Part shown: positions 1-18,983 of the stretch, piece after piece
Layout of the letters: each line of letters opens with the position of its first letter
How positions within the stretch are numbered: position 1 is the first letter of the stretch
DNA from: a virus
IMG/VR virus record: IMGVR_UViG_3300037258_000069
Span: 1 to 28,625 of that record
DNA: 28,625 nucleotides
Direction: 5' to 3' (one strand)
Translations under genes and position numbers: made by a program
Notes under the pieces: model-generated
Told to the model about the DNA's origin: nothing
Databases searched by the model: none
The model's input: the letters and a program-made list of their open reading frames with translations, nothing else

Positions 1-1283
1 AGCAGCAGTTCGCCGGGCTGCAAGGTGGAGGCCTCGTTCTGCCGGCCGCGGGTAATGGTGATCGTGTCCCGCTGGTAAGTCTGGCTGGTGATGTCCGTCC
101 AGGCGCCGTTGACAAACAGCTCGACGAGCAGGGTAAGCGGGACCTGCGGGAAGATCGCCGGAAGCGCGATGGTCCCGGACCCGTGAAGGGCCAGCGGGCC
201 GAGGGCGAACGACCCGGCTACGTTGAAGGTGTTAGCCGTGATGAACGACGCGGAGGAAGACAGGGCCAGCGGGCCGAGAGCGAATGCCCCGGAGACAATG
301 AAGTTACCGGTGGTAGCTGAGACTGGTGCGGACAGGGCCAGCGGTCCGAGAGCGAACGACCCGGAGACTGCGAAGGACCCCGGGGTGTTGACGTTGTCGA
401 TGAACGTGGTGCCGGTTGCTTCACTGTCGTCGATGCCGGTGTACACGTTGTAATAAAGGCTGGAAGCGTCGAATGAGTAGGTCTTAGACCACTGGTTAGT
501 CCAGGTAACGCCGTCGGGAGCAGTGTCGAAGAGGACTGTCCCGCCGGATTCCCGGATGCGCCACCAGGCGTGACTCGTCGCGTTATAGGCAATGGTAGAG
601 CTGGTGGTCACCACGCCGTTCTCGGCAACCACGGAGTACAAGTTAGGCGTCGCGTAAGAGATACCGAAGTAGTTACCGTCGTCGTTGATCAGCTGGAAGC
701 CGGTTTCAGTAGCCGTGCCGACAAACGGGGTCACCTGGGCGTACGCGTACGTTCCGCGGACATCGTAGTAACCGGTCGACCCCAGGCTGGAGCTGTATGA
801 CGTGTCGCACTGGATAGCGCACTGGTTGCCGGTGACCGTGACGGTACCCGTCGTCTGGTTCCACACCGAGTCCAGGTCGTTCACCGTAAACGGGTCGACC
901 AGGGTGGAGGTGGCAACGCCAGGCGTGCTGACGGGGAAGAACACCAGGGTGATACCGGCCGCGTAGGAGAAGGGGTTTGTCCAGGACCCTCCGCCGGTAA
1001 CAGTTAGCTGCCCGGTGCGCGTTCCGCCCGTCGCTGAGCTGGTGTCAATCGCGGTGTGCGCGACTGAGCTGGTCCCGCCGTCGTTCACTGAGCTGGTGAA
1101 ACCGTTGGCACCGCCGGTTGTCCAGGTGTTAGTTCCTGCGGACGCTTCCGTGCAGGCAGCAAACAGGGCCAGGGTGCCGTAGGCGGGGCTGACGGTCGGC
1201 GCGGAAATAGAAGACACGACTGCCGCTGCTGCCTTGGGGGCGATAAACGGCTGGTGCGGGAACCCGCGGTTGAAGATAGCCAT
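1..1283 (-). CDS. Modular minor tail protein, 3' end outside window
   Basis: An open frame starts at ATG 1283 and runs off the left edge without a stop (427 codons visible). GAGGGAG lies 9 bases before the ATG and overlaps the stop of the upstream gene. In order it shows an N-terminal beta-rich domain (about residues 1-118), a jelly-roll/LamG-like module (about 126-300, with the signature SHAWWRIRES), three copies of a 14-residue repeat beginning V-[SA]-G-[SA]-F-A-L-G-P-L-A-L (306-319, 330-343, 355-368), and a C-terminal stretch near 378-427 (VELFVNGAWTDIT, then ITITRGRQNE). That last stretch resembles the N-terminus of actinophage minor tail proteins; the match is from memory of the family. 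The jelly-roll module and repeats are shared with the 1094-aa protein at 2585-5869, so this is probably a fusion of an adsorption/carbohydrate-binding module to a tail-tip protein. The reading frame and repeats are seen directly; binding function is inferred. Confidence 0.85.
   Translation of the reverse strand, partial: MAIFNRGFPHQPFIAPKAAAAVVSSISAPTVSPAYGTLALFAACTEASAGTNTWTTGGANGFTSSVNDGGTSSVAHTAIDTSSATGGTRTGQLTVTGGGSWTNPFSYAAGITLVFFPVSTPGVATSTLVDPFTVNDLDSVWNQTTGTVTVTGNQCAIQCDTSYSSSLGSTGYYDVRGTYAYAQVTPFVGTATETGFQLINDDGNYFGISYATPNLYSVVAENGVVTTSSTIAYNATSHAWWRIRESGGTVLFDTAPDGVTWTNQWSKTYSFDASSLYYNVYTGIDDSEATGTTFIDNVNTPGSFAVSGSFALGPLALSAPVSATTGNFIVSGAFALGPLALSSSASFITANTFNVAGSFALGPLALHGSGTIALPAIFPQVPLTLLVELFVNGAWTDITSQTYQRDTITITRGRQNEASTLQPGELL
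180..368 (-). repeat. Three copies of the 14-codon VSGSFALGPLAL repeat
   Basis: Copies lie at 180-221, 255-296 and 327-368, in frame on the minus strand and spaced 75 and 72 bases apart. The two rightmost differ at 6 of 42 bases. They encode the linker-like repeat between the jelly-roll module and the minor-tail domain of the left-edge gene. Related copies are at 3644-3754, 4886-5002 and 13554-13595. Confidence 0.9.
385..905 (-). repeat. Jelly-roll (LamG-like) module, copy 1 of 3
   Basis: This encodes about 175 residues closely similar to two modules in the gene at 2585-5869. Shared landmarks are a Trp near the start (DSVWNQT versus DTVANWAN), a Cys-Ala/Gly-Ile stretch, YAYAQ, ETGFQL, SHAWWRIRE, a phenylalanine strand with S/APDGxxW, and a closing TGTxxxxNVN. 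The fold assignment as a concanavalin/LamG-type beta sandwich is an inference from the pattern. Confidence 0.75.
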
Positions 1284-1297
1284 TGGCTACGACTCCC

Positions 1298-2011
1298 TCA
1301 CCATAGTGATGCCGCGCCAATCGCCTGCCGCAGGTAGACCCCCGCTGGAGTCGTTACTACTGCCACTCCCGGCTGGATCTCCGCAAGGGCGAACGCGTTG
1401 GTGGCAGCCGTGTTGGTGAAGCCCATGGAGATGGCGGTGCCGCCAGTAGACAGGGACGCGGCCTCGATGCACGCCGAGGTGTCTCCGTTCGGCCCGGCGC
1501 TGTACTTCCCGTAAATCGAGGTAGTCGCGTTAGCCGTCAGCGTCTTAGCGCCAGAGCTGGTACCGAATCCGCCGACGCACTGCGATCCGGTAGTGCCAGG
1601 GGTGATCGACAGGTGCGTGTTGGACGCGTCAGCGATTGCGGTGACACCGCTCTGGGACGCAGCAGCAGCGGCGCCGGCGAACTGCCGGGTGATGATCGAT
1701 ACCCCGTCAGCAGTCCCGCCGGCGACAGTAACGGCAAAAGCAACAGTCGCGGCACCGGACCACGCATCCCGCACGTAGACGAAAGCGAGGCCCGTGTTTG
1801 TTGTCTGGTTGGTTTCCGAGACCAGCAGCGTCCAGGACCCGGAACCGGAAGTATCGGTCAGCGTGGCACTGACGAAAGTTAGCCCGCCTCCGTTACCAAC
1901 GCCGACGATAGCTACTTGGAGTGCTCCGGACGTCGGGGTGTAGGAGCCGGTAGTAACTGCCCCGGTATCGGACGTCACGTACGCGGCGCCCGCGGTCTCG
2001 GTCAGTGCCAT
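1298..2011 (-). CDS. Tail-associated beta-rich protein
   Basis: The protein has 237 aa, with ATG at 2011 preceded by the strong ribosome binding site AGGAAGGAGGG. It is rich in Ala, Thr, Gly and Ser. The first half shows alternating hydrophobic strands (ALQVAIVGVGNGGG, SWTLLVSE, LAFVYVRDAWSG) of the kind found in phage tail proteins with one or more beta-sandwich domains. The same type of pattern occurs at the C-terminus of the 1094-aa protein upstream (GDLLIAVI, then YGWTLIYGE, then AAYWLVAAGSDS). It lies in the tail-tip cluster downstream of the tape measure, and its stop codon overlaps the ribosome binding site of the next gene. It is most likely a structural or receptor-binding accessory; no catalytic motif was seen and the exact role is unknown. 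Confidence 0.8.
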   Translation of the reverse strand: MALTETAGAAYVTSDTGAVTTGSYTPTSGALQVAIVGVGNGGGLTFVSATLTDTSGSGSWTLLVSETNQTTNTGLAFVYVRDAWSGAATVAFAVTVAGGTADGVSIITRQFAGAAAAASQSGVTAIADASNTHLSITPGTTGSQCVGGFGTSSGAKTLTANATTSIYGKYSAGPNGDTSACIEAASLSTGGTAISMGFTNTAATNAFALAEIQPGVAVVTTPAGVYLRQAIGAASLW

Positions 2012-2035
2012 TTACCCTCCTTCCTGACTATGTAG

Positions 2036-2052
2036 TCTTCGTATTACGAAGA
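2036..2052. promoter_or_regulatory. 17-base dyad in the 45-base gap between tail genes
   Basis: TCTTCGTATTACGAAGA is a perfect inverted repeat with 8-base arms around a single central base. It sits in the gap between the genes at 2057-2551 and 1298-2011, just upstream of the latter's ribosome binding site. A one-base centre is poor for an RNA hairpin but typical of a protein operator site. No promoter elements stand out beside it. Confidence 0.5.
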
Positions 2053-2056
2053 TTGT

Positions 2057-2551
2057 CTACTCTCTCCAGATCACATAGGCCAGGGCAGACACTGAGGTTG
2101 TCGGGACGGTGATCGTGCAGATGAGGAACGCAGAGACAGGCACCATCGGTTCGCGGCCGAGCGGGAACTGCTTCACGTAGGTGTTAGTGCTCAGCAGCTG
2201 GGCGTCGTAGATCTGCGTGGTGGTGGCAACCGGGGCGACCGAGTTGGTGGCACCTGCGAGCAGCCAGTCAGAAGTACAGCCGGAAGCCGGGGCACCAGGG
2301 GGACCGTACGCGGAGATAGTGCCCGCGGCCATGTGAGTCAGTACGGACGTGGTGCTGGTTTCCCGCAGGTCCACGATCACGCCTGCCGGCGTCCCGGTGA
2401 ACGACACCCCGTACTCGACAAGGCTGATCTGCTTGGTGGACGGCGTGGCCAGCTGGAACAGCACCGTCGCGGAAGTCCCCGTGGTTACCGGGATCACGCT
2501 GCCTGTGGTGGGCGTCGCGAAAGTGCCGGTGAAGTACAAATTCTCGGCCAT
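2057..2551 (-). CDS. Small tail-associated structural protein
   Basis: The protein has 164 aa, with ATG at 2551 and AGAGGAGA 5 bases upstream. It is dominated by Thr, Val, Ala and Ser, without signal peptide or membrane segment. The segments ISLVEYGVSFTG and VIVDLRET recall small beta-rich phage structural proteins whose core begins with an E-[WY]-G-V-S-F-type strand; I recognise this only loosely. It lies between the GH16 tail protein and a beta-sandwich tail protein and is expected to be part of the tail tip or a side fibre. No enzymatic motif is visible. Confidence 0.8.
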   Translation of the reverse strand: MAENLYFTGTFATPTTGSVIPVTTGTSATVLFQLATPSTKQISLVEYGVSFTGTPAGVIVDLRETSTTSVLTHMAAGTISAYGPPGAPASGCTSDWLLAGATNSVAPVATTTQIYDAQLLSTNTYVKQFPLGREPMVPVSAFLICTITVPTTSVSALAYVIWRE

Positions 2552-2584
2552 CAGTTCTCCTCTTTCCCTTCCAGGTTACGGGGA

Positions 2585-5500
2585 TCAGCCCGAGGCGTAT
2601 ATGCCGTAGCTGTCGAACCAGCCGGTTGTGCCCGTTGTGTCGTACTGGGTGATCTCGTACAGCGTCGCGGTCATTGCCCCGGTGCCGGTCAGCGTGCAGG
2701 TGAACGCGGGAATAGAGTCACTCCCGGCGGCGACCAGCCAGTACGCGGCGACGTAAGCATGCGGGGAGACCGCGGTGTTTCCTTCGCCGTAGATAAGCGT
2801 CCACCCGTACGGGTACGGCCCGGCTGCGCCCGTGCTGCTCAGCGCGAGGTCGTCCATCCAGAACGGGCCGATGCTGGCCACGCCGGGGTTGATGCCGAAC
2901 CGGACGCTGGTGATCGACGCGGACGCGGTGTTTACGCTGGCCGCGGTGGTCTGCGTTTCCGTCGCGGTCGTTCCGTCTACCTGCTCGTACAGGCTGACAG
3001 AAAGCTGCCCGACGGTGGCGGAGCCAGTCAGGAAGCCTTCCAGCCGGAACCACTGGTTGAGCGGGATCGTGTTCGTGGTCGTCAGGACGTCGGTACCCGC
3101 GGAGCCGTCGAGGGCGATGACACCGGAGCTGTTGACGTTGACTGACCCGCAGTACGTGCTGGTGGCCACCCACTCGACGAGCCGGAAGCTGGACGCGGGG
3201 AACGCGGTGAAGTAGAAGTAGCCGCGGAACCACAGCTGGCTGCCGGACAGGTTCCACGCTGCGTAGGACGCCTGAACAGACGACCCGGTCGAGACCTTAG
3301 CGGACAGGGACCCGTGCGCTGAAGTGGAGTTGTCGAAGGCAATAGAAGTGCCGGTTCCGCTGCCGATCGCGGTGAACTGGGTGTCACCCGGGGCGGCCGA
3401 GTTGCTGGTGCTGACCGTGGTGCCGGACGTGCCGCCCTCGAAGGTGTTCTCCAAGGTGGTAGTAGACAGCGCCGGAACCGGGGGTGTTACCGAAGTAGCC
3501 GCGGCAGCCGTGATAACTGCGATAAGCAGGTCTCCAGCGGTGTCCGTTTGCCCGGTGCCGAGAACCGGGGTTACCGATCCGGATGTAGCCCGGGTCAGGG
3601 TCGGGGTGCCAACGTAGCTGAATGCCTGAACGTAGCTCGCGGCAGCTGACAGGGCAAGAGGACCGAGGGCGAACGCGCCGGAGACAGTGAACGTCCCCGC
3701 GGTAGTCGCGGAAGAGGACAGGGCAAGAGGACCGAGGGCGAACGCGCCGGAGACTGTAACCGGGGTGACGTTGATGTTGGTGACGTTGCTGGTCCCGGTG
3801 CCGGTTCCGGTTCCCGCGAAGACAGCGACCGTGCAGCCGTTTACTGAGAACGCGTACGCCGTTGACCACAGCTGTGCCCAGATGACTCCGTTCGCCGAGG
3901 TCTCGAAGAACAGCGTGCCGCTCGATTCCCTTATCCGCCACCAGGCATGGCTCGTCGCGCTGTAGGTAACGGTAGGGCTGCTCGTGGTCGTACCGTTCTG
4001 GTACAAGGTGGCGTACATCAGACCGCCCAGGTAACCGAGCTCCGCCTCGTACGAGCCTATAGACGACCCGGTACCGTCCCCGACGAACACCTGCAGCGCC
4101 GTCTGGGCGGTGGCTGAGATAAACGGCAGGAACGCGCCGCCTACCGAGCCGCCCTGCAAGTTGTACGTGACGGAGCTGATCAGCTCGGAATCGTAGCTGG
4201 GGTCAGCCTTGATCGAGCACTGGCTGCCCGCGACGGATACGGTGCCGAACGACCACGCCCACAAGGTTGACAGGTCGTTAGAGTCGAACCCGTCGGACAG
4301 CGTAGAGATAGCCGCCGGGTTAACGTTTACGTTAGTGAAGTACGAGGTACCTGTGGCGTGCGTCGTGGTGTTACCAGCGTAGACACTGATGAACAGCGCG
4401 GTGACGTTCATCGTGTACGCCGTCGAGTAGAACAGGGTCCAGTTAAGCCCGTCGGGACTGACGTCGAAAAAGAGCATTCCGGTCAGTTCGCGGATGCGCC
4501 ACCAGGCGTGCGTGCTCGCGTTATAGGTAACAGGTGGGCTGCTTGTGGTTACCCCGGCCTGGGTCAGGAAGATCGCCAGGGTTTCCTCGGAGTAGTCAAA
4601 CGTGATGCTGTTACTGCCGTCCGCGTACAGCTGGAAGCCAGTCTCGGATACAGCCGTCCGAAACGGGGCAAACTGCGCGTAGGCGTAAGAACCCGTCAGG
4701 TTGTACGTGCTGGTCGTCTGCAGGCTGCTGGAATACGCGTTGTCCGACTGGATACCGCACCAGCCGTTGCCCACGGCGAAAGTACCCGTGCTGTTCGCCC
4801 AGTTGGCTACCGTGTCGTCAGATCCGAACTGGTCAGTGAAAGACGCAGTAGACCCGGCTCCGCTAGTTCCGGAAACCGTTGCCGAGCTGCTCAAGGCGAG
4901 TGGCCCCAGCGCGAACGAGCCGGACACCGTGCTGCCCGTGCCCGTCGTGGCGGTGACCGAGCTGCTCAGGGCGAGTGGCCCCAGCGCGAACGAGCCGGAC
5001 ACCGTGGTGTTAGTCCCGGAGGTGTTCGGGTCCGGGCCAGCGGGCGCCCAGATCCTGACGTAGTCCACCTTCATCGAGTCGATGGGCAGTGCGGAAGCGA
5101 CGGGGGTACCGCTAGTGGCTTTCGCGATGTGTACCTGGAGGATCGGGTACAGGATGCCGTTGGCCGCGGTGAAATTCCACTCACTAGACGGGCTGCCGCT
5201 CGACGGGGTGATCGGTGAGCTGGTGTTAAGCACCCCGTCTACCCACGTCGTGATGCTGTTCTCGGTGTAGTCCACCCGGTAAACGTGAAACACGCCGCCG
5301 CCGACAGTGCTGGTCTTCGAGTTTCCGAACGCCGTCGGGTTGGAACCCGGGCCTCCGTAAAAGCTGCTCTCAGACACCGTCGGCTGGGGGCTTGACTGGC
5401 CGCCGTCCCCGGCTTCCATCAGGTCAATCTCGGCGTAGTCCGCGTTGGTGTTGGAGTTACTGCCCAGGAACCAGCAGACTGTCCACAACCCGCTCAGCGC

Positions 5501-5869
5501 GTTTACGGCAACCCTGAACTCACACGACTGGTTGAGCTGCATGGCGAACTTGGGGGTGCCCGCACTCTGCTCACCGGTGGCAGACGCGTCTACGTAAGCC
5601 GACGGCCACATGTTTGACGGAGCTCCGCCTGTCCCCTGCGGCCCGACGGTAAACACCAGGTTGCTGGCCCCGTCCTGGTGCAGGTACGTCACCGTCCCCG
5701 GGTACCACACAAGCTGGTCGGTTCCGTTGAACAGGCCAGACCCGACGGCGATGTTCCAGATAGCAGTGCTGGGCAGCGTGTTAGCGATGCCGCTGCTCAT
5801 GTTGTGGGTGACGCCGTTCGGGTCAACCCAGGTGCCGCCGCTGAAGTCGTCGTTCAGAATGTAACTCAC
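2585..5869 (-). CDS. GH16-type glycoside hydrolase tail protein with jelly-roll modules
   Basis: The protein has 1094 aa, with GTG at 5869 just after the tape-measure stop. Residues 1-275 look like a family 16 glycoside hydrolase: LWTVCWFLG, then DYAEIDLMEAGDG with the catalytic pattern E147-x-D149-x-x-E152, then FHVYRVDYTENSITTWVDG, and MKVDYVRIW near 266-274. GH16 enzymes cut beta-1,3/1,4-glucans or related polysaccharides by a retaining mechanism. Next come two short repeats (290-303, 315-328), two jelly-roll modules (about 343-517 and 523-702), two more short repeats (706-719, 729-742), and a C-terminal beta-sandwich (748-800 and 1015-1080) that appears split by another jelly-roll domain (803-1012). 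Position behind the tape measure suggests a tail-tip depolymerase or adsorption protein. The enzyme call rests on motif and layout; the substrate is unknown. Confidence 0.85.
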   Translation of the reverse strand: MSYILNDDFSGGTWVDPNGVTHNMSSGIANTLPSTAIWNIAVGSGLFNGTDQLVWYPGTVTYLHQDGASNLVFTVGPQGTGGAPSNMWPSAYVDASATGEQSAGTPKFAMQLNQSCEFRVAVNALSGLWTVCWFLGSNSNTNADYAEIDLMEAGDGGQSSPQPTVSESSFYGGPGSNPTAFGNSKTSTVGGGVFHVYRVDYTENSITTWVDGVLNTSSPITPSSGSPSSEWNFTAANGILYPILQVHIAKATSGTPVASALPIDSMKVDYVRIWAPAGPDPNTSGTNTTVSGSFALGPLALSSSVTATTGTGSTVSGSFALGPLALSSSATVSGTSGAGSTASFTDQFGSDDTVANWANSTGTFAVGNGWCGIQSDNAYSSSLQTTSTYNLTGSYAYAQFAPFRTAVSETGFQLYADGSNSITFDYSEETLAIFLTQAGVTTSSPPVTYNASTHAWWRIRELTGMLFFDVSPDGLNWTLFYSTAYTMNVTALFISVYAGNTTTHATGTSYFTNVNVNPAAISTLSDGFDSNDLSTLWAWSFGTVSVAGSQCSIKADPSYDSELISSVTYNLQGGSVGGAFLPFISATAQTALQVFVGDGTGSSIGSYEAELGYLGGLMYATLYQNGTTTSSPTVTYSATSHAWWRIRESSGTLFFETSANGVIWAQLWSTAYAFSVNGCTVAVFAGTGTGTGTSNVTNINVTPVTVSGAFALGPLALSSSATTAGTFTVSGAFALGPLALSAAASYVQAFSYVGTPTLTRATSGSVTPVLGTGQTDTAGDLLIAVITAAAATSVTPPVPALSTTTLENTFEGGTSGTTVSTSNSAAPGDTQFTAIGSGTGTSIAFDNSTSAHGSLSAKVSTGSSVQASYAAWNLSGSQLWFRGYFYFTAFPASSFRLVEWVATSTYCGSVNVNSSGVIALDGSAGTDVLTTTNTIPLNQWFRLEGFLTGSATVGQLSVSLYEQVDGTTATETQTTAASVNTASASITSVRFGINPGVASIGPFWMDDLALSSTGAAGPYPYGWTLIYGEGNTAVSPHAYVAAYWLVAAGSDSIPAFTCTLTGTGAMTATLYEITQYDTTGTTGWFDSYGIYASG
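3644..3754 (-). repeat. Two copies of the VSGAFALGPLAL repeat
   Basis: Copies at 3644-3685 and 3713-3754 differ at only 2 of 42 bases, spaced 69 bases apart. They separate the second jelly-roll module from the C-terminal beta-sandwich of the 1094-aa tail protein. Confidence 0.9.
3764..4303 (-). repeat. Jelly-roll (LamG-like) module, copy 3 of 3
   Basis: This encodes residues of about 523-702 of the 1094-aa tail protein. It shares SHAWWRIRES, FFETSANGVIW and the closing TGTSNVTNINV with the other two modules. It abuts copy 2 with a five-residue gap, so the two form a tandem duplication. Confidence 0.75.
4319..4843 (-). repeat. Jelly-roll (LamG-like) module, copy 2 of 3
   Basis: This encodes residues of about 343-517 of the 1094-aa tail protein. 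Landmarks are SYAYAQFAPF, ETGFQLYADG, THAWWRIREL, SPDGLNWTLF and TGTSYFTNVNV. By eye it is more similar to the module of the left-edge gene (385-905) than to its own tandem neighbour in the YAYAQ and ETGFQL strands. Confidence 0.75.
4886..5002 (-). repeat. Two copies of the VSGSFALGPLAL repeat
   Basis: Copies at 4886-4927 and 4961-5002 differ at 1 of 42 bases, spaced 75 bases apart. They join the GH16-type domain to the first jelly-roll module. The near identity points to a recent duplication or gene conversion. Confidence 0.9.
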
Positions 5870-5871
5870 AG

Positions 5872-8800
5872 CTAACCACCCAGCACCTTCTGGAGACCGC
5901 CCTTTTTCCGGATGGTGTACTGCAGGTCAGTCAGCTGCCGGTCGGTCAGCCCGAGGGTCTTGAAGCTCTGGCCCAGTTCCAGCGTGATGCTCATGCCTGA
6001 CCCGCCAACGGCCTCGGGCGCTCCGGTTCCGTTGTAAGCCATCGTGTAGCCGGGCTTCAACCATCCGCCGTTGTCGTAACTGACCGCGCCACCGTGCGCG
6101 TACCCGTGGCCGGACCCGATGCCCATGCCGTTGGACTCCAGGGACGGCCCGTACACATGATCGGCATAGTTCAGCGCGGCGGCGATGTTGGCCAGCGGGT
6201 TGTAAATGTCGGTGCTGGTGCCAGGCCAGTGATACTCGTCGAACGTCGGCTGGATCACCTGCATGAGTCCCTTAGACGGGGTTCCCAGCAGGGCGTTCGA
6301 GTCAGTCAGGTTGATAGCGTTCGGGTTACCGCCGCTCTCCGTGCTCATCTGGTACAGCACGTTGTTCTGCAGGGCAGCCGAAAGGCCCTCCATCGACAGT
6401 GCCTGCGCGACAGTGGCTGCCCACTGGCTGACTCCGGCCGACGGGGTGTAGTTGATGTTTCCGGCAGCCGCGGTAGCGGCCTTCTTGGCAGCAGCCTGGA
6501 ACGCCGTGTTTTCCTGCTGCGCCCACAGCTTTGCGGTAGCTGAACCCCACGAGCCCTCCTGCGAGGCAGCGAACGACCCGGGAGCGTTGAAGTCCACACT
6601 TCCGCCGGAGGCGTACTTGCGGCTGTTAACAGCGTCCAGGAAGTGCATGCCGTACTTGTTGACCGCGTCTGCCTGGACCACGTACTCGCCGTCAGACAGC
6701 ATCGCCGGGATCTTGTCGCCCCGGGGCCCACCGGGTCCTGACATGTAACCGCCGGCTGCCTTGCCGATGAACACAAGGCTGGACGTCTCAGGGTTTTCCC
6801 CTGGGAGGTGCGAGATCGCGTCGAGGGTGCCCTGTGCGGTGGCCGTTACCCCGACGCTGACTGTCTTGCCCTTCAGCGCGTTGATGGCTCCTTGCAGCTT
6901 GGGCAGCGAAGTCTGCCACAGGGTGTCGGCCTGCTTCTTGGTTAGCCCGAGGGAACCGGTGGCGAAAGCGTCGAACTCATCGTGCGCCTTGGACGTGCTG
7001 CCGGTCAGCGTAACGAACTGGGCGCCCAGGGACACCGCCGCGGACTTAGTTGACAGGCTGTTCAGCCCGGTCTGCTTGATGGCCGTGTACAGGTTCTGCA
7101 TCGGCTTGAGGCCGCCGGTGCTCGTCAGCGTCACCTGGGCCATCGCCTGGTTTAGCTGGGAGCTCATCGCGGCCGACAGGTTCTTCGCGGCCTGCGTCAG
7201 GTTCGCCGTGCTCAGCGTCAGGGTGGCCTGCTGCTTGTCGAGGTCGGTTTCCGCCCCCTGGGTATTCCCGACCCACTTGGTCAGCGCGGTGAAGCTGTCA
7301 ACACCCTGGAACCCGGCGATCTGGGCGAGAGCGAAAACCTCCGCCGTCGCCTCCTTCGACCCGGCGGCCAGTGGCAGCATCTGCGCGACGACGTCCTTGC
7401 CTGCCTTAGCTAGTGCATCCTGCGCGGTAGCCGTGTTGCCTGAGGCAGCCGCCATCGTCTGCAGGTTGCCGTACAGGGTGACAGCCGAGGTTATCTGCTG
7501 GTCAAACGCCTGACGGGCAGCGAGGGAAGCCGTTGATGTGCCGTTCATTGCCGCACCGACTGCGGCGAACTTGTCCTTGAGGTTACCGACCTTGATGGTC
7601 AGCGTTGCCCCGGCGCCCCCCGTGCTAGCCAGCGAGGAAGACAGCTCGGTGAGGCCCTGCTCGAACGTAGCGAACGACGAGTCGCCCCCGGTGACAATAC
7701 CCAGCCAGGCACTGTAAGCCTGCGCTAGCTTCTGCGCGTCAGTAACCTGGGCGGCCTGAGTTACATTGAGAGCGTTCAAGGCTTGATTCAACGCCCCGAC
7801 ACCCGGGGTCATCACCTGCAGCTCCTTGGCGTACCCGGAGACCATCGTGTTGATGGTCATCCAGTTGTCAGCCCCGGAGCCGAGCAGCTGGTTCGAGGTG
7901 ATCTGCGCGCCGGAGGCGAGGGCCAGCGCACCGGGGATTGTCGTGCCGTACGTAGCAGCCAGCGCGCCCAGGTTGACATTGACGTTCTCCTGCTGGGCGT
8001 TCAGCTGGGACAGGCCGCCCTTGTAGGTGCCAAGCGACTGGGTGGCTGCCTGGACGCCCTGGTTCATGCCATCGAGCCGGAATTCCACGGTGCCGCTGGT
8101 GCTGGCTACCTTCGACTGCGCGGTGGACACGTCGCTGGCAGCAGCGGTGATCTTCGCGTACGTCTGCGCTACCCCGGACGAAAGTGAGCTCTCTAGCTGG
8201 GCCAGCGACGCGTTCTGCACGGTCTTCTGGATGCTCGAATTGAAGTCGTCCGCCGCAGTCTTGCTGGCCTTCAGGTAAAGGACGACGGCAGTCAGCGCGC
8301 CGATCATCAGGCCAACGCCCGCGATAACCGGCCCGGTGCCAATTTCCTCCAGCGCGCCGCCGACGTTCAGTGCGCCCGCAGAGATCTTGTTTTCTGAGCC
8401 GAGGAACTTCTCCGCGAAGGTGGCGATGCTCAGGCTGGCGCTGGCTGCCCCGTCGACCAGGCCCGAAAACAGCTTGGCCCCGATGGTGCCGGTGAGGCCG
8501 CCGTAAAGTATCGCTCCGTGCAGCTTCAAGAACGCCGCGAGGACCGGCTCGATACCAGAGACAACCGCGGCACCAGCATGCAGCCCGGCGTCCCCGAAAT
8601 TCAGCAAGACTTCCGCGTATCCCGGGACGGCTCGCATCAGGCTGCCGAGGATAGAGCCAACGGCTTCAAACGAGTCGATCAGCTTAAGAAGGTCGTCGCT
8701 CGCCTGGTTGATGAAGTTGCCGCCAGCAGACGACGAGAACGCGATCGCCGCCTTAGCCGCCAGCTGATCAAACGCCCCGCCGAGCTTAGCCAGGTCGGGA

Positions 8801-9828
8801 CCGAGCTCACCCGAGTGCGTCTGAATGGCGTTCAGGGCGATGCCGAAGGTTTCCAGCACGCTCGGCCGAACCGCGGAGGACAGGGACTGCCCCTGGGTGG
8901 CCAGCGACTTGAACGCCTGCCCGGTACCAGTGGCTGCCACGTTCATGTTCTGCAACTGCTTGCCGACCATTTCCACGGTCGGGGCAGCGGTCAACCCGAA
9001 GGCGGCAGCTGCGATAGTGGCCGGCACCCAGATCGCCAAACTCTCAACAACGGCTTCTGTCATAAGGTGCCAGCCGTTAGTAGCGTTAATCAAGTGGCCA
9101 GCGAGCTTTACCATTCCGTTGTCAGAATCGTGCAGCGCGGGGAGGGCCATCCCCAGGGCTCCGCCAAACAGGGGGATCGCAGTGCCCCCGATGTTCATTA
9201 GTGTCCGAAACCAGTTTCCACTAATGATGCTTACCCTGGATATCTCGTCTCCGGCCCCACTGGCAGCACTGATCAGACTCCCCGACGACGCATCCGATGC
9301 CGCGCTCAGCAGGGCAAAATCCGCGGCCACCTTCTTGATCTTCTCGTCCATCGCCGTGAGGGCGGCCTCAGCTGCTGCCGTGCCGGTCACGCCGACGTTG
9401 TCGCTAATGTTGTCGGAGCTAGCCCCCTGAAACGCTGTCGCCTTGGCCAGGCTGGCGTCATCGACGGCAAACTTAACCGGGATGGTCTCGGTCAGCCCCT
9501 GGATCGCGGCGAGCTTAGCCGTCAGGTCGGCCTCGTTGATGTTGATGTCGAGGAGGTCGGAGATCTTCTGCTGCTCGATCGCGCGCTTGAGGAACTCCAG
9601 CTGGGACATCACCTTGCCCGACGGGACGTTGATGTCGATGATGTCCGCGATGCCCAGCGCCTGCATCTTGGCGCGCAGTGCCATCAGGGACGAGTCGAGG
9701 CCTGCGGTCTCCAGCCCGACCCGGATATTGCCGGCGTCCGCGAGGACAGCCTTAAGCTCCTCGACCCGGGCGAGCACGGAGGCGAAAGCCGGACCGGTGG
9801 CGTCGTTACCGCGGATGGTGACGGCCAC
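5872..9828 (-). CDS. Tape measure protein with lytic transglycosylase-like domain
   Basis: The protein has 1318 aa from GTG 9828; a TTG one codon earlier is also possible. It is the longest gene here and follows the G/GT chaperones, as tape measures do. It is Ala-rich and largely helical, with hydrophobic segments near residues 259-284 and 499-520 that could enter the membrane during DNA ejection. Near the C-terminus, about 1145-1235, there is a soluble lytic transglycosylase-like domain: STESGGNPNAIN with candidate catalytic E1164, then GLMQVIQPTF (1187-1196), then a Asn-Tyr-Ala-Asp helix. Such domains open peptidoglycan for DNA entry. No good ribosome binding site precedes the start, which is 4 bases after the stop of the HNH gene, so translation is probably coupled. 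Using the usual rule of about 1.5 angstrom per residue, tail length would be near 200 nm. Confidence 0.93.
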   Translation of the reverse strand: MAVTIRGNDATGPAFASVLARVEELKAVLADAGNIRVGLETAGLDSSLMALRAKMQALGIADIIDINVPSGKVMSQLEFLKRAIEQQKISDLLDININEADLTAKLAAIQGLTETIPVKFAVDDASLAKATAFQGASSDNISDNVGVTGTAAAEAALTAMDEKIKKVAADFALLSAASDASSGSLISAASGAGDEISRVSIISGNWFRTLMNIGGTAIPLFGGALGMALPALHDSDNGMVKLAGHLINATNGWHLMTEAVVESLAIWVPATIAAAAFGLTAAPTVEMVGKQLQNMNVAATGTGQAFKSLATQGQSLSSAVRPSVLETFGIALNAIQTHSGELGPDLAKLGGAFDQLAAKAAIAFSSSAGGNFINQASDDLLKLIDSFEAVGSILGSLMRAVPGYAEVLLNFGDAGLHAGAAVVSGIEPVLAAFLKLHGAILYGGLTGTIGAKLFSGLVDGAASASLSIATFAEKFLGSENKISAGALNVGGALEEIGTGPVIAGVGLMIGALTAVVLYLKASKTAADDFNSSIQKTVQNASLAQLESSLSSGVAQTYAKITAAASDVSTAQSKVASTSGTVEFRLDGMNQGVQAATQSLGTYKGGLSQLNAQQENVNVNLGALAATYGTTIPGALALASGAQITSNQLLGSGADNWMTINTMVSGYAKELQVMTPGVGALNQALNALNVTQAAQVTDAQKLAQAYSAWLGIVTGGDSSFATFEQGLTELSSSLASTGGAGATLTIKVGNLKDKFAAVGAAMNGTSTASLAARQAFDQQITSAVTLYGNLQTMAAASGNTATAQDALAKAGKDVVAQMLPLAAGSKEATAEVFALAQIAGFQGVDSFTALTKWVGNTQGAETDLDKQQATLTLSTANLTQAAKNLSAAMSSQLNQAMAQVTLTSTGGLKPMQNLYTAIKQTGLNSLSTKSAAVSLGAQFVTLTGSTSKAHDEFDAFATGSLGLTKKQADTLWQTSLPKLQGAINALKGKTVSVGVTATAQGTLDAISHLPGENPETSSLVFIGKAAGGYMSGPGGPRGDKIPAMLSDGEYVVQADAVNKYGMHFLDAVNSRKYASGGSVDFNAPGSFAASQEGSWGSATAKLWAQQENTAFQAAAKKAATAAAGNINYTPSAGVSQWAATVAQALSMEGLSAALQNNVLYQMSTESGGNPNAINLTDSNALLGTPSKGLMQVIQPTFDEYHWPGTSTDIYNPLANIAAALNYADHVYGPSLESNGMGIGSGHGYAHGGAVSYDNGGWLKPGYTMAYNGTGAPEAVGGSGMSITLELGQSFKTLGLTDRQLTDLQYTIRKKGGLQKVLGG

Positions 9829-9832
9829 CAAA

Positions 9833-10300
9833 TTAGGGATGACGCACCTCCCGCACTATGTCACTAACGGTCTGCTGAGACAGCCCGTACTCAATGGCTA
9901 GCTGCCGCTGACTCACCCCTCCGCGATGCCAGGTGCCCTGACCTGTACCGTACCCCTCGCGGTATCGCCTCTGAATTTCCGCCCGGATGCTCGGTTCTAT
10001 CAGCCCCGTGTATCTCCCTCGCCCGCGACCGCGCTCCACCATGTCACGATGGTTGTCAGCCGAGGTTCCTTCGTACAAGTGCTCAGGCTGGATACACGGC
10101 GGATTGTCGCAGTGGTGGCACGCCTGCATCCCGGGCAGCAACGAGCGGCCTAGCTTGGCCATGAGCGCCCGACGGTGAGCCAGATCGTGCTTATGGTGCC
10201 CTGGCGCACGGATAGCAACGGGAACGTAGACCTGTACGTAACCCTTCGGCAAACGGAGACCAGGTGCCTCTATGCAGGGAGATTCACCCCAGTTAGGCAT
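9833..10300 (-). CDS. HNH homing endonuclease
   Basis: The protein has 155 aa, with ATG at 10300 and GGAGGAG 5 bases upstream inside the end of the GT coding frame; the two overlap by 8 bases. The HNH core is clear: C61-HH-C64, C69, then P72-E-H74, an EGTSADN segment with N83, and D86. This is the layout of small phage HNH_3-type nucleases with an added Cys cluster. Residues 129-150 (VSQRQLAIEYGLSQQTVSDI) form a helix-turn-helix that probably gives site specificity. It sits between the tail chaperones and the tape measure, which are usually adjacent, so it is most likely a free-standing mobile endonuclease. It may recognise DNA at the cognate empty junction; that is inference. Confidence 0.9.
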   Translation of the reverse strand: MPNWGESPCIEAPGLRLPKGYVQVYVPVAIRAPGHHKHDLAHRRALMAKLGRSLLPGMQACHHCDNPPCIQPEHLYEGTSADNHRDMVERGRGRGRYTGLIEPSIRAEIQRRYREGYGTGQGTWHRGGVSQRQLAIEYGLSQQTVSDIVREVRHP

Positions 10301-10876
10301 CAGGCTCCTCCAGGTCAGGCCGCGCCGCGGCGATTATCTTCAGCATCCGTATGAAGCCGGTGTCTTCCCGGGCCAGCTGAGAAGGAAGGCAGTGGAACCG
10401 CTCGCACAGCCCCACCATCATCTCCGCCTCCGCTAGCTCGCCTGGCTTGACGACAAGCTCGCCAGAGCTGTGGCTTCCTCCGGGGAAATCCCGCCAGAGC
10501 CTGATTTTCCCATTAGCTCGTCGGGCACGTTGGTCAGCTCTTCCATCCACCGCCGCACCAGGATGGTCGACAACCGGGAGTCAAGCTTGTCCAGCTCGTC
10601 CTTGCTGACCGCGACGGCCTTGTTCTTCCGGACCAGGTTCCAGCTGCGCACGTGCGCGAAGAACTTCTCCTGCACGTACTCACTGGAAGCAACGTTAGCC
10701 TGAGCTTTCTCCGCGTCCGTCTTGCCCGTCACCGTCGTCATCCAGCCGCGCATCATCTGGTTGTACTCGCCGATAGTCATGCCGGAAACGAGAACTTCGA
10801 GCCCCTGGTACGTGCCTGAGCCGAAGCTGATCTTGTACTCCGAGATGGTGTCCTCGATGTCGAAGCTCACGGTCAC
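10293..10876 (-). CDS. Tail assembly chaperone GT (frameshift product)
   Basis: This is the fusion made when ribosomes slip -1 at GGGAAAA (10505-10511). It reads 10876-10505 in the G frame, then re-reads base 10505 and continues to the TAA at 10293. That gives 124 residues of G plus 70 residues, 194 aa in all. The joint reads ELMGK then IRLWRDFPGG. The T part contains MVGLCERFHCLPSQL and FIRMLKIIAAARPDLEEPDA, typical of the T half of actinophage GT proteins. In lambda-like phages G and GT act as chaperones that bring tail tube subunits to the tape measure and are absent from the virion. The T frame has no convincing start of its own with a ribosome binding site, which supports the frameshift. 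Confidence 0.88.
10433..10876 (-). CDS. Tail assembly chaperone G
   Basis: The protein has 147 aa, with GTG at 10876 overlapping the previous stop by four bases (GTGA). It is acidic and helical with an N-terminal beta-rich part (MTVSFDIEDTISEYKISF). Its place between the major tail gene and the tape measure is that of lambda gpG. A slippery heptamer lies 23 codons before its stop, and a second frame continues past it. The fraction shifting is unknown. The call rests on synteny and the frameshift more than on family motifs. Confidence 0.88.
   Translation of the reverse strand: MTVSFDIEDTISEYKISFGSGTYQGLEVLVSGMTIGEYNQMMRGWMTTVTGKTDAEKAQANVASSEYVQEKFFAHVRSWNLVRKNKAVAVSKDELDKLDSRLSTILVRRWMEELTNVPDELMGKSGSGGISPEEATALASLSSSQAS
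10505..10511 (-). other. Programmed -1 ribosomal frameshift site GGGAAAA
   Basis: In the G frame the bases read G-GGA-AAA, the ideal X-XXY-YYZ slippery pattern. After slipping, the tRNAs pair with GGG and AAA. The -1 frame is open from here to 10293 and encodes the T domain. Lambda uses the closely related GGGAAAG at the same place. Confidence 0.9.
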
Positions 10877-11145
10877 GCCTTCTTACCGGGGGCGTGCGCG
10901 GCCATGTAAGCGCGCTCCTCGTCAGTGAACTCAACCTTGACCCGCTTACCGCGCCGGGGGGAGATAGTGCCTGAGGACTGCTCCTGGAGCTTGCGGGTGC
11001 GGGCGTTGTAAGAGGCGTGATTAGCTGCTTCCGCCGCGGTGACGATACCGCTGGCACCACCGGTCGCCGCGAAGGCAATCGCGTGCAGCAGCTTGTGCCG
11101 GATGCGCTTGTCCTTGCGGACGATAACGACCTGGGGCTTTCCCAT
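10873..11145 (-). CDS. Small basic protein of the tail module
   Basis: The protein has 90 aa, with ATG at 11145 and GGAGGGAG upstream. It is strongly basic at the N-terminus (VRKDKRIRHKLLHAIAF) and in the middle (SPRRGKRVKVEF), with a small Ala/Gly-rich hydrophobic stretch at about 22-40 that is too weak for a confident membrane segment. It is the first gene after the hairpin that follows the major tail gene and overlaps chaperone G by four bases, so it is translated with the chaperones. I do not recognise the family. A tail-assembly accessory or a positively charged DNA/RNA-binding protein are both possible. Confidence 0.75.
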   Translation of the reverse strand: MGKPQVVIVRKDKRIRHKLLHAIAFAATGGASGIVTAAEAANHASYNARTRKLQEQSSGTISPRRGKRVKVEFTDEERAYMAAHAPGKKA

Positions 11146-11176
11146 CGCTTTCTCCCTCCGGGTTACCGGGTTAAGG

Positions 11177-11209
11177 CCCTCCCCCGAGACCCGGTGGCCC
11201 GGGGGAGGG
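11177..11209 (-). terminator. Hairpin downstream of the major tail gene
   Basis: There is a perfect 10-base inverted repeat, CCCTCCCCCG (11177-11186) with its complement at 11200-11209, around a 13-base loop. It lies 40 bases after the stop of the major tail gene. No U-run follows on the minus strand, so it may be a partial terminator or an RNA-stabilising hairpin that sets the high ratio of tail tube to chaperone. Confidence 0.7.
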
Positions 11210-11248
11210 TGTCTTCAGTATACGTGTGATAACCTACGACAGCTAACG

Positions 11249-11680
11249 TTACGCGTGCGTGCCCCAGAGCGGGACAGTACCGTCAGACAGCTGGCCGGGA
11301 ACCTGCCACGTAAGTTCACCCGTGTTAGCCCGAGTGATCTGGTAATCGCTCAGCACGCAGTTGTTCACCAGGCTGGGCGCACCCGTCGCCGCGCCAATCG
11401 GGTCAAGCTCCACCGACCGGGTGGCCGAGGTAGACGGGATTGTCTTGAGCACGTCGTGCGAGGCGTTGGCCGTCGCCGAGTTGAACACGCCGTTCAGGGT
11501 GACGGTGAAGTCAGCCAGGAGCAGAAGAGTCTCGTGCGCTGACTTGTCGACGCCCGTGGTGTCCTGAGTTCCCCGGGGCGTAGTGAAACTGTAGTTAGTG
11601 ACGTCGTTGCTGATGGTCCGAGCGGTGCCGCCAGAGTCCTGGACGAGGACCGCGGACCCAAGGCCACTGGTCTTTGCCAT
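11249..11680 (-). CDS. Major tail (tube) protein
   Basis: The protein has 143 aa, with ATG at 11680 and GAGGAT 5 bases upstream. It begins MAKTSGLGSAVLV and ends with RANTGELTWQVPGQLSDG and VPLWGTHA, a pattern I associate with actinophage tail tube subunits. It precedes a strong hairpin and the G/GT chaperones, as expected for the most abundant tail protein. The protein at 12168-13121 shares the KTSGLG start and a D-x-T-T-x-V-x-K-S-A segment, so the two are likely paralogues. Which of them forms the main tube is not certain. Confidence 0.8.
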   Translation of the reverse strand: MAKTSGLGSAVLVQDSGGTARTISNDVTNYSFTTPRGTQDTTGVDKSAHETLLLLADFTVTLNGVFNSATANASHDVLKTIPSTSATRSVELDPIGAATGAPSLVNNCVLSDYQITRANTGELTWQVPGQLSDGTVPLWGTHA

Positions 11681-11682
11681 GG

Positions 11683-12168
11683 TTATCCTCGATTCCTTTC
11701 GGTGTTGATGCGGTCGAGGTGCTCAGCGCAGTCCTCAGCCCATTCGGTGCCGTTCTTGTGAACGCGACGCTGCCCGGCCGGGTTACCCCGCCAGTCGCCC
11801 CCGACAGTGAGGAACGTGGCTGGCCGCTCTACGCGGACCTTGTGCCCTCCCGCGAAGCACGGCGTGCCCGGGGGGAAGGTGAACTCAGTGATGGTGCCTG
11901 GCGGCCGGTTCTCCGTGAAGCTGCGGCCGGTCTTTCCCTTACGGATCATGTCCGCGAGGATGGCGCCCTGTCCCGTCGAGACGTCCAGCTTCGTGACGAA
12001 CCCGTTGGCGAAGTCAGGGCAGTCCGCTTCCTCACAAGTAGCAGAGCGCCAGTGCGTCGCCAGCGGCAGCTTCATCTGGTACGTCTTGTACGCCAGCGGG
12101 CTAGCCAGCGGAGCAAGCCGCGAGACGAAAGTGTTACCGAACGGAACCTGCACCATCCCGCGGCCCAT
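11683..12168 (-). CDS. Unknown protein between two tail proteins
   Basis: The protein has 161 aa, with ATG at 12168 overlapping the upstream stop by one base (TGATG), so it is translationally coupled. Three cysteines lie at residues 45, 50 and 104, with a CEEADCPDF segment. There are many basic residues near the C-terminus (GQRRVHKNGTEW, CAEHLDRINTERNRG). No membrane segment or known catalytic motif is seen. Position between two major-tail-type proteins suggests a small structural or assembly protein. I do not recognise the family. Confidence 0.75.
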   Translation of the reverse strand: MGRGMVQVPFGNTFVSRLAPLASPLAYKTYQMKLPLATHWRSATCEEADCPDFANGFVTKLDVSTGQGAILADMIRKGKTGRSFTENRPPGTITEFTFPPGTPCFAGGHKVRVERPATFLTVGGDWRGNPAGQRRVHKNGTEWAEDCAEHLDRINTERNRG

Positions 12169-13121
12169 CAGAAGACAACTCCCGCGGAGCCGTTACGGCA
12201 GAAGTTAACCGCGAACTTGGCGTAGCTGAAGGTTCCGGTCGTGATCACCTTGGTGAACTCATTGATCGTCGCGGTGTTAACCGTCGCTAGCCGCTGCGCG
12301 CCGACCGTCGTCATCGCCGTCGTAGTCAGCCCGGTCGTCGCGTACGTGCCGCCAGAGGTAGTCGCCGACTGGATGTCTATGGTGACCGAGGTACCGACGA
12401 ACGCCATCAGGTGAAAGTACGCCTGACCGCCGAACGAGCTGCCAGCTCCGTCGTCATGCGCGGTACCGGTTGTCGCCGCCGTGTCAATGCGAGCCCCTGG
12501 GGTCAGCTGCTCACCCCACTCCAGGCCGAACGCGTTGCCCATCGCCTGCACGGAGAAGGTAAGCGACGCGTCAGTGCCGCGGGTGCCGTCGTAGTTGACC
12601 TGCTTGGCGTTAACGCTAGCCGCCGGGTTGCCGATCGCCTGGCCGCGGAAGTAGCTGACAACCGTGTCCGTGCGCGGCAGTGCCGACAGCGCGGTGTACC
12701 CGAAGCCCACCGTTGTCCACACCCACGTCGGGCTGCCCGTGTAGGTAACCGCGATAGACCCGAGTGGCGGGAGAAGGTAGGAGCCGTCACCTGTGCCGAC
12801 CTGCGTGCCGTTGATGACAACACTGGTGACCGTGCCCGCGGAGATCGTCACCAGCACCGGATCGTTGTAGGTGCTGACCTGCGCGACGGTGGTGGCCGGG
12901 AACGACGGGGTGCTCACCGAGGTGACCGGGTCGAAGAACGCGGTGAAGTCGATCTCGCCCTGGCGCAGCGAAGTCTGCCGTACATAGGCTGACTTGTTCA
13001 CCGTGGTGAAGTCGAGGACGTCCTTCGGCGTCGCGATCTTGGACACCGCGTTGACGTCCCCGGACAGGTCGAACCCGCCGACATAGAACGCGTCGCCTAG
13101 CCCGCTGGTCTTAGTGGACAT
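12168..13121 (-). CDS. Major-tail-type structural protein
   Basis: The protein has 317 aa, with ATG at 13121 and AGGGGAG 5 bases upstream. It begins MSTKTSGLGDAFYVGGFDLSG, then DFTTVNKSAYVRQ, then an inserted small beta domain at about 80-135 (DPVLVTISAGTVTSVVING, then LLPPLGSIAVTYTG). It ends with a beta-rich stretch (LEWGEQLTPGARID, FGGQAYFHLMAFVG, QRLATVN, FSYAKFAVNFCRNG) like that of actinophage major tail proteins. It is more than twice the length of its probable paralogue at 11249-11680. It may be the tube protein with an extra surface domain, or a second tube-related subunit. Confidence 0.78.
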   Translation of the reverse strand: MSTKTSGLGDAFYVGGFDLSGDVNAVSKIATPKDVLDFTTVNKSAYVRQTSLRQGEIDFTAFFDPVTSVSTPSFPATTVAQVSTYNDPVLVTISAGTVTSVVINGTQVGTGDGSYLLPPLGSIAVTYTGSPTWVWTTVGFGYTALSALPRTDTVVSYFRGQAIGNPAASVNAKQVNYDGTRGTDASLTFSVQAMGNAFGLEWGEQLTPGARIDTAATTGTAHDDGAGSSFGGQAYFHLMAFVGTSVTIDIQSATTSGGTYATTGLTTTAMTTVGAQRLATVNTATINEFTKVITTGTFSYAKFAVNFCRNGSAGVVF

Positions 13122-13138
13122 CTACGCTCCCCTGCCTC

Positions 13139-13552
13139 TTACGTCTGAACCTGGGTGATCTGGATGCCGCTGCCGCCGACAGCAACGGTCGCACCGCCGG
13201 TAAGCGTCAGCGACGGGGAGATATTCAGGTCCGCCCCCGAGGTGCCAACAGAACCCGTCATCACAGTGGCTGAGCCCGAAGTAACCAGCGCCACGTAACC
13301 CGCGGTTCCGGCCGAAGCAGTTCCTGACGAGACCGTGTTGGCCGTCGCAGTGCCGCCTGAACCAGAAGCCGTCGCTGTCGGGAAAGCCGTCGAACCGAAC
13401 GTCAGGGTGGCAAGCAGCGTCCCCGTGAGAGAGCCGTTAACCGCGGGCTGCGTACCCGTACGAATCTGAATGGTGCCACTGTTCAGCAGGGCGGCTACCG
13501 CGTTTATGCTGGCCACAACGGTAGCGTTGTTCCACAGGGGTGAGTTAGCCAC
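13139..13552 (-). CDS. Small neck/tail structural protein
   Basis: The protein has 137 aa from GTG 13552, chosen because AGGAG (13562-13566) lies 9 bases upstream; the frame opens at a TTG at 13561 that has no room for a ribosome binding site. It is rich in Ala, Gly, Thr and Ser, with SINAVAALLNSGTIQIRTG near the start and TLLATLTFGSTAF. Small phage structural proteins with a helical start and a core of the form LLATLTF are common near tail genes. It overlaps the end of the 37-aa gene by 8 bases. Exact role unknown. Confidence 0.78.
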   Translation of the reverse strand: MANSPLWNNATVVASINAVAALLNSGTIQIRTGTQPAVNGSLTGTLLATLTFGSTAFPTATASGSGGTATANTVSSGTASAGTAGYVALVTSGSATVMTGSVGTSGADLNISPSLTLTGGATVAVGGSGIQITQVQT

Positions 13553-13658
13553 GAAATTCAACTCCTAGCGGTGGGAGCGAGAAGCTGCCACTGACGGTGA
13601 ACTCCATCGGGGGGTCCTCCGGCTGCTCGTCGGGGCAAGTGCCGTTCTCTTCAGGCAT
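13545..13658 (-). CDS. 37-aa protein carrying the VSGSF repeat
   Basis: This very short gene has ATG at 13658, GAGGAA 5 bases upstream (overlapping the stop of the previous gene), and TAA at 13545. The protein opens with an acidic Pro-rich segment (MPEENGTCPDEQPEDPPMEF) and ends with TVSGSFSLPPLGVEFRG. The second half matches the VSGSFALGPLAL repeat found seven times in the two large tail-tip genes. Strong ribosome binding site, tight packing and the shared motif support a real gene. Its product could be a small neck or tail decoration peptide; this is inference. Confidence 0.7.
   Translation of the reverse strand: MPEENGTCPDEQPEDPPMEFTVSGSFSLPPLGVEFRG
13554..13595 (-). repeat. Divergent copy of the VSGSF repeat
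   Basis: This encodes VSGSFSLPPLGVEF in the 37-aa gene. It matches the tail-tip repeats at V-S-G-S-F-x-L-x-P-L. It differs from them extensively at the DNA level, so it is an old copy or convergent. Confidence 0.6.
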
Positions 13659-18383: not shown

Positions 18384-18983
18384 TTACTCGGCCGACCGCG
18401 GGGGAGGGCCTACTTTTGCTGCTCTCAGGTTAGCTGCCACGCGTTCCATGCGGCCAGGGTCGTCACCGAAGTAACCGATGCCCCGGTTGCACGGGTCGCA
18501 AGCGATGCCGCGGATGCAATTACCGCACGCCGTATTGCCTGTGCAGCACCCGTGGTCGTGGTCGACGTGCACCTTGCGCGGCTCGTCGAGGAGTAGCCGG
18601 TCACCGCACAGGTAACAGCACCCGTTCTGGCTGTCGATGAGTTGCTGCCTGTACTCCGGCGTGATCCGGTACCACAAGTGCTGCTTCGTGGCCTTGTCGC
18701 GAGACCGGGGGTGCTTGGCGTACCAGTCTTTGTTGAGTTGTGCCCGTCGGGCGCGTTCTTCCGGAGGCAGGTTCGCAACCCGTTCACGTTCCTGCCTCCG
18801 CCTCTCATCACCCGTCGGGCCGACCCTAGCTTCTCGCTGACTTTCGAGGATGGCAGCCCGGTTACGCGCGTAATGCTGACGGGATGCTTCCCGCTGGCGC
18901 GCACCGGCTGCCTCCTCCGAAAGCCTCGGCCTGCTGTGCTTCTCACAGGTGCACCCTGGTTCACACTTACTGCGTCCTGGCAT
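18384..18983 (-). CDS. Endonuclease VII-like homing endonuclease
   Basis: The protein has 199 aa from ATG 18983, with AAGG close upstream. The recombination-endonuclease-VII/HNH core is clear: C123-xx-C126, the VDHDH segment (140-144), GIACDPCNRGIG with C162-xx-C165 and N166, and a GDDP turn at 173-176. An N-terminal Cys cluster (CEPGCTCEKH, residues 7-16) and a long Arg/Glu-rich helical region (25-100) precede it. T4 endonuclease VII resolves branched DNA, but free-standing copies in structural operons of actinophages usually behave as mobile endonucleases. It lies between the major capsid gene and its accessory genes. The 20-base gap upstream has TACAAT, possibly a weak own promoter. Confidence 0.9.
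   Translation of the reverse strand: MPGRSKCEPGCTCEKHSRPRLSEEAAGARQREASRQHYARNRAAILESQREARVGPTGDERRRQERERVANLPPEERARRAQLNKDWYAKHPRSRDKATKQHLWYRITPEYRQQLIDSQNGCCYLCGDRLLLDEPRKVHVDHDHGCCTGNTACGNCIRGIACDPCNRGIGYFGDDPGRMERVAANLRAAKVGPPPRSAE

What the first reader, a model, noticed from the sequence alone, without database searches (positions are those of the whole stretch)
180..13595. A short VSGSF(A/S)L-x-PL repeat shared by three phage genes, eight copies
Seen in the sequence: seven copies of a 14-codon repeat in two tail-tip genes (180-221, 255-296, 327-368, 3644-3685, 3713-3754, 4886-4927, 4961-5002) and one divergent copy (13554-13595) in a 37-aa gene. Copies come in pairs or a triplet spaced 69 to 75 bases, and within the pairs they differ by only 1 or 2 bases. 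They always sit between larger domains. Inference: a small bead-like or beta-hairpin unit that joins domains, docks onto the virion, or serves as a DNA-level recombination handle for swapping adsorption modules.
Basis: partly seen in the sequence, partly recalled or inferred. Interest (0 to 1): 0.7.

Follow-up and report, generated by a model that had tools for sequence, protein, structure and literature searches.

The report
Phage-specific linker repeats in tail proteins
A phage known from metagenome sequence has seven near-identical copies of a short water-repelling peptide at the joints between the presumed sugar-binding and sugar-cutting parts of two tail-tip proteins, and each related phage has its own version of the peptide at the same joints, which suggests selection on the protein rather than copying of DNA.

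Summary
All eight stated copies exist at the stated coordinates. Seven (VSG[SA]FALGPLAL, 69-75 nt spacing) are a real repeat. The eighth, in the 37-aa ORF, is probably a look-alike: its orthologues carry another motif (ITxxGGIxLxxLGGG).

Two related viral contigs carry repeats at the same junctions (GH16-like|2|ConA-like x2|2|C-domain; ConA-like|3|tip core), each with its own consensus: FALGPLAL (window), VALGPLA (G001), [VI]AVPKPxL (G002). Copies in different arrays of one phage are 75% identical in protein; copies at the same junction of different phages 43%. Between the window's arrays codons match at random (40%, 38% expected) while residues are 91% identical, and the longest shared DNA word is 13 nt. 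The arrays are kept alike as protein, not as a DNA recombination handle.

Best reading: a hydrophobic strand-turn-strand spacer between presumed carbohydrate-binding or -cutting beta-domains of an actinophage-like adsorption apparatus. About half of the scanned phage proteins with this ConA-like domain carry a short repeat beside it. One of three module rearrangements falls inside an array. AlphaFold failed (pLDDT 28), so fold and oligomeric state are untested.

The parts
180..221 (-). repeat copy a3, VAGSFALGPLALHG
255..296 (-). repeat copy a2, VSGAFALGPLALSS
327..368 (-). repeat copy a1, VSGSFALGPLALSA
3644..3685 (-). repeat copy b4, VSGAFALGPLALSA
3713..3754 (-). repeat copy b3, VSGAFALGPLALSS
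4886..4927 (-). repeat copy b2, VSGSFALGPLALSS
4961..5002 (-). repeat copy b1, VSGSFALGPLALSS
3..1283 (-). tail-tip protein, N-terminal 427 aa (gene runs off the record): N-domain, ConA-like domain, 3 repeats, start of the phrog_5313-type tip core; orthologue of 1583 aa in G001
375..926 (-). ConA-like (beta-sandwich) domain 3, adjoining array a; the fold name is inferred
   Evidence: about 40% identical to the two domains in the 1094-aa protein
3..155 (-). start of the conserved tail-tip core (in Streptomyces phage Vondra the gene begins here)
2585..5869 (-). 1094-aa tail protein: GH16-like | 2 repeats | ConA-like | ConA-like | 2 repeats | C-terminal domain
5030..5869 (-). GH16-like (beta-1,3-glucanase family) domain with the ExDxxE motif EIDLME
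   Evidence: hmmsearch against PDB chains E 9.5e-10; motif read
4319..4852 (-). ConA-like domain 1
3761..4318 (-). ConA-like domain 2
2816..3478 (-). about 220-aa module inside the C-terminal domain, absent from the G001 orthologue; its ends are not at repeats
1298..2011 (-). 237-aa tail protein; in G002 its homologue is fused after ConA3 and one repeat, i.e. lies within array a
13545..13658 (-). 37-aa small acidic ORF with the look-alike 'eighth copy' (13554-13595); judged not a member
13139..13552 (-). 137-aa virion protein (phrog_3758-like); likely start GTG 13552, with its AGGAG inside the end of the 37-aa ORF

Best explanation
The seven copies are a short protein-level joint in the tail-tip adsorption apparatus of an actinophage-like virus with a long tail. 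Each unit is a roughly 10-residue hydrophobic stretch (strand - Gly/Pro turn - strand pattern, G-S-h-A-h-x-x-x-A-h) plus a 13-15-residue Ser/Thr/Gly-rich spacer. Two or three units separate a GH16-like glucanase domain, three ConA-like (presumably glycan-binding) beta-sandwiches and the conserved tip core. Shown: the repeat, its junction positions in three phages, conservation of the unit core over its spacers, protein-level constraint without DNA identity between arrays, and a phage-specific consensus. Inferred: that the units form small ordered beta elements that set distance and orientation of the glycan-acting domains on the virion, and that the shared consensus reflects a common structural demand, packing or binding partner.
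For: Same junctions and copy numbers (3+2+2) in G001. G002 has 2+2+1+2 at the same junctions with 69/75-nt spacing. Between the window and G001 the unit core is 48/63 identical over seven copies, and the spacers between copies 12/64. Same-phage, other-array protein identity is 0.75, against 0.43 for other-phage, same-array; the observed labelling is the best of 216 permutations (p 0.028, the lowest possible). Codon identity between arrays in the window is 0.40 against 0.38 expected, with residues 0.91 identical; within arrays 0.84. Flanking domains: GH16-like, ConA-like x3, phrog_5313 core. Eight of 17 scanned phage proteins with this ConA-like domain, two of them G001 and G002, have significant short repeats beside it, so repeat joints here recur.
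Against: No structural support: both AlphaFold2 models failed (mean pLDDT 28.5 and 27.7), so ordered hairpin and disordered spacer are not told apart. Only three phages carry this repeat, so the consensus pattern rests on three lineages. That the ConA-like domains bind glycan is inferred from fold class and neighbours, not tested; the fold class itself is not confirmed by a structure.
Confidence: 0.65

Rival explanations
1. Docking motif: all copies bind one virion partner (or pack on each other in an oligomer), and the consensus drifts in step with that partner, giving each phage its own version in both proteins.
For: Phage-specific consensus shared across two proteins without DNA homogeneity. 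Precedent for a baseplate linker that inserts into clefts of the hub protein: Claus gp26 (PMC13252515).
Against: No partner is identified. Other phages with the same ConA-like domain use unrelated repeats or none.
Confidence: 0.2
2. DNA-level recombination handle for swapping adsorption modules.
For: In G002 the 237-aa domain lies between repeat 1 and repeats 2-3 of array a, so one module boundary is inside an array. Units within an array are nearly identical and could cross over unequally.
Against: Between arrays at most 13 nt are shared exactly and codons are random. The about 220-aa insert and the C-domain/N-domain fusion in G002 are not at repeats. The sequence differs so much in G002 that it cannot mediate exchange between these phages.
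Confidence: 0.08
3. Neutral by-product: linkers tolerate anything, and slippage or gene conversion repeatedly re-seeds short repeats there, giving phage-specific arrays.
For: Very similar DNA within arrays. Many phages have unrelated repeats at this kind of junction. Homogenisation by DNA exchange soon after the phages split cannot be excluded, because synonymous sites between window and G001 are saturated too.
Against: Between arrays the residues stay 91% identical while codons are at random, and the core is conserved over its spacer between phages. A neutral sequence would have lost both.
Confidence: 0.07

Closest known systems
Interdomain linkers of baseplate accessory proteins (BppU of mycobacteriophage Douge; gp26 of Claus)
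   Same: A linker joins a virion-attached domain to a carbohydrate-binding beta-domain at the tail tip (PMC13033339); Claus gp26 has a linker that inserts into clefts of the hub protein (PMC13252515).
   Different: The Douge linker is one 15-residue segment; here hydrophobic units are repeated 2-3 times and share one consensus across two proteins.
Fibronectin III repeats suggested as linkers in lambda gpJ and reported in T5 pb3/pb4 (PMC7291167)
   Same: Repeated beta units between structural and receptor-binding parts.
   Different: FnIII is a domain of about 90 aa (general knowledge); these units are 23-25 aa and match no Pfam family.
Triple beta-spiral shaft repeats (adenovirus fibre; from general knowledge)
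   Same: Short repeats of alternating hydrophobics around a Gly/Pro turn.
   Different: Shaft repeats come in long continuous rows; here 1-3 units with polar spacers. Trimerisation not tested.
Other short repeats next to the same ConA-like domain (L041, L042, L043, L044, L051, L052)
   Same: Short repeats, best period 18-38 aa in the scan, at the junction of the same kind of domain in phage proteins.
   Different: Unrelated sequences; some polar, such as the Ser/Pro-rich one in L051.

Membership tests
This repeat family (joint repeat, three phages) | G-S-h-A-h-x-x-x-A-h core in 69-75-nt units at GH16-like/ConA-like/tip-core junctions | tested here: met
   Seven window copies, seven in G001, seven in G002; single copies deviate at one or two positions
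This repeat family (joint repeat, three phages) | Eighth copy in the 37-aa ORF shares the repeat's history | tested here: not met
   Small proteins at the same place end in DITMTGGIMLPSLGGGN (G001) and contain VITAEGGISLAKLGGG (L037) and do not fit the profile; shuffle p about 0.007-0.017
Triple beta-spiral shaft repeat | Trimeric interleaved beta structure | not testable with these tools
   No multimer prediction; monomer models failed
Triple beta-spiral shaft repeat | Many consecutive repeats of about 15 aa | tested here: not met
   Units of 23-25 aa, at most three in a row
Collagen-like Gly-X-Y shaft | Continuous Gly-X-Y triplets | tested here: not met
   Sequence has no such triplet run
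Known curated repeat or domain family | Match in Pfam or PHROGs confined to the repeats | tested here: not met
   No such hit; the PHROG hits cover flanking domains
GH16 (flanking domain, not the repeat) | Family similarity and ExDxxE catalytic motif | tested here: met
   PDB GH16 chains, best E 9.5e-10; EIDLME in the window, EIDMEE in G001. The Pfam score is under its cut-off (18.5 against 22); activity not tested
DNA recombination handle | Long identical DNA shared between sites | tested here: not met
   Longest word between arrays 13 nt

The most novel reading that the evidence does not exclude
Each phage has a virion-wide 'docking code': all joint repeats in its two tail-tip proteins are kept alike by selection because they bind one shared partner or one another, and the code changes in all copies together between phages.
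Probability: 0.2. Interest if true: 0.65.

Novelty: new variant of a known kind. Interest (0 to 1): 0.4.

Why it matters
Domain joints in phage tail proteins are usually treated as featureless linkers. Here the joint is constrained at protein level and is the same in two proteins of one phage but different between phages, which gives a testable handle on how adsorption modules are positioned and exchanged. If such joints prove general, they mark domain boundaries in otherwise unannotated tail proteins.

Tried and rejected
Search for the exact repeat in IMG/VR (0 hits). A looser single-unit pattern gave 13 stretches, of which only G001 is a true relative. A tandem pattern in 84,980 prokaryote genomes gave 0, but that pattern asks for one Gly codon and the LGPL form, so it would miss many variants; the tail-tip N-terminus found no relative there either. 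tblastn of the 70-aa array in 50,697 phage records: none, though the low-complexity filter may hide hits. The 37-aa protein in phage records: none. The 37-aa gene as part of the system: rejected as above; the more distant relatives L030-L034 have no gene between tail terminator and major tail protein, and in G006 the 137-aa gene has only an 11-codon leader. Two AlphaFold2 jobs with two-sequence alignments failed; no fold search was run on them because a low-confidence model gives meaningless matches. Recombination handle: rejected as the main role.

Full report
Observation. The eight segments are present as stated, with the stated spacing. Seven are near-identical in protein. Bases differ by 1 and 2 of 42 in the two pairs and by 6-12 in the triplet. 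In the predicted proteome of the window (9,272 residues) the only other good match to their profile is the segment in the 37-aa ORF.

The eighth copy. The 37-aa ORF lies just before a 137-aa virion protein (phrog_3758-like), whose likely ribosome-binding site AGGAG overlaps the end of the 'repeat'. In G001 (IMG/VR contig 3300037258_000491) the small protein at the same place is MTEWQQDPLPFDEEDVHDEEWHAEHDITMTGGIMLPSLGGGN. In L037 it is MSEETPDPGGADEQAEVPPVITAEGGISLAKLGGG..., beside a homologous 137-aa gene, there after the tape-measure gene. The family motif is ITxxGGIxLxxLGGG. Shuffled proteomes match the repeat profile as well in 2 to 5 of 300 runs. A link cannot be excluded, but the simplest reading is a look-alike.

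Where the seven sit. The 1094-aa protein begins with a GH16-like domain (PDB GH16 chains, best E 9.5e-10) that keeps the ExDxxE motif (EIDLME; EIDMEE in G001). It then has 2 repeats, two ConA-like domains, 2 repeats and a C-terminal domain. The 427-aa fragment has an N-domain, a third ConA-like domain (about 40% identical to the other two), 3 repeats and the start of the tail-tip core (phrog_5313 in the G001 orthologue). 'ConA-like' is my name for the fold, inferred from sequence pattern. In Streptomyces phages Vondra and Dagobah the gene starts at the core, so the N-terminal domains with their repeats look like an addition in this lineage.

Relatives. G001 (62-67% identical) has the same 3+2+2 copies at the same places, written GSVALGPLA. 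A third virus (contigs G002 and G006, 99.9% identical over 11 kb) has mostly GS[VI]AVPKPxL at the same junctions with the same 75/69-nt spacing. The units are conserved over their spacers: 48/63 identical core residues over seven copies between window and G001, against 12/64 in the spacers.

Phage-specific consensus. Copies in different arrays of one phage average 0.75 identity; copies at the same junction in different phages 0.43, no more than those at different junctions (0.44). With three phages the exact permutation p is 0.028, the lowest the design allows. In the window the arrays are 0.91 identical in protein, but their codons match only as often as random draws from the phage's codon usage (0.40 against 0.38), while copies within an array match at 0.84. 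The arrays are therefore old, constrained as protein, and not kept alike by recent DNA exchange; within an array copies are young. Homogenisation by DNA exchange soon after the phages split is not excluded, because synonymous sites between phages are saturated too (0.52 and 0.51 against 0.49 and 0.50).

Recombination. Three module differences were seen. An about 220-aa module in the window's C-terminal domain is absent from G001, and its ends are not at repeats. In G002 the C-domain is fused to the N-domain away from repeats. In G002 the homologue of the window's separate 237-aa protein follows ConA3 and one repeat, and the next ORF, overlapping by ATGA, starts with two repeats and the core: the array of three is split 1+2 around a module. 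One of three is no strong case for a handle, and the shared DNA between arrays (13 nt at most) speaks against it.

Generality. Of 17 phage proteins with this ConA-like domain (G001 and G002 among them), 8 have a significant short repeat beside it, of other sequence in the other six. So repeat joints at this kind of domain recur.

Mechanism. The unit core is hydrophobic (96th and 98th percentile of all 10-mers in the window's proteins for the window and G001 forms, 83rd for G002), alternating around a Gly/Pro turn, unlike a plain polar linker. I infer a small beta element that spaces the glycan-acting domains. AlphaFold2 gave unusable models, so this step is inference. Mycobacteriophage baseplates give the nearest parallels: a flexible linker between a ring domain and a carbohydrate-binding module in Douge (PMC13033339) and a linker inserted into the hub in Claus (PMC13252515).

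Limits. The window and its relatives are metagenome fragments; the host is not known, and 'actinophage-like' rests on similarity of the tip core and of the putative tail terminator to Streptomyces phages. Only three lineages carry the repeat. Relatives very near the window may be left out of the searched collections, as the tools state.

Noticed in passing
window 5030-5869 (-): Tail protein begins with a GH16-like beta-1,3-glucanase domain that keeps the ExDxxE catalytic motif; a possible tail-borne glycan hydrolase.
   Followed up: partly
window 11249-11680 and 12168-13121 (-): Two major-tail-like proteins (143 and 317 aa, both phrog_9522-related); the third virus has two copies of the shorter one, 78% identical in DNA.
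   Followed up: no
window 10293-10876 (-): Two overlapping ORFs (147 and 85 aa) a little before the tape-measure gene, in the place where tail assembly chaperones with a programmed frameshift are usual; slip site not examined.
   Followed up: no
window 9833-10300 and 18384-18983 (-): Two ORFs with HNH-like Cys/His motifs (by eye); the second also occurs in G001.
   Followed up: no
window 5872-9831 (-): Tape-measure protein with an SLT transglycosylase domain.
   Followed up: no
L037, G001, G006: The 137-aa virion protein gene moves: between tail terminator and major tail gene (window, G001), after the tape-measure gene (L037), before the terminator (G006).
   Followed up: partly
L005 (Streptomyces phage Hiyaa gp13): Another short repeat family (LGxAxxxTxxHAL...) beside a ConA-like domain (by eye).
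   Followed up: no
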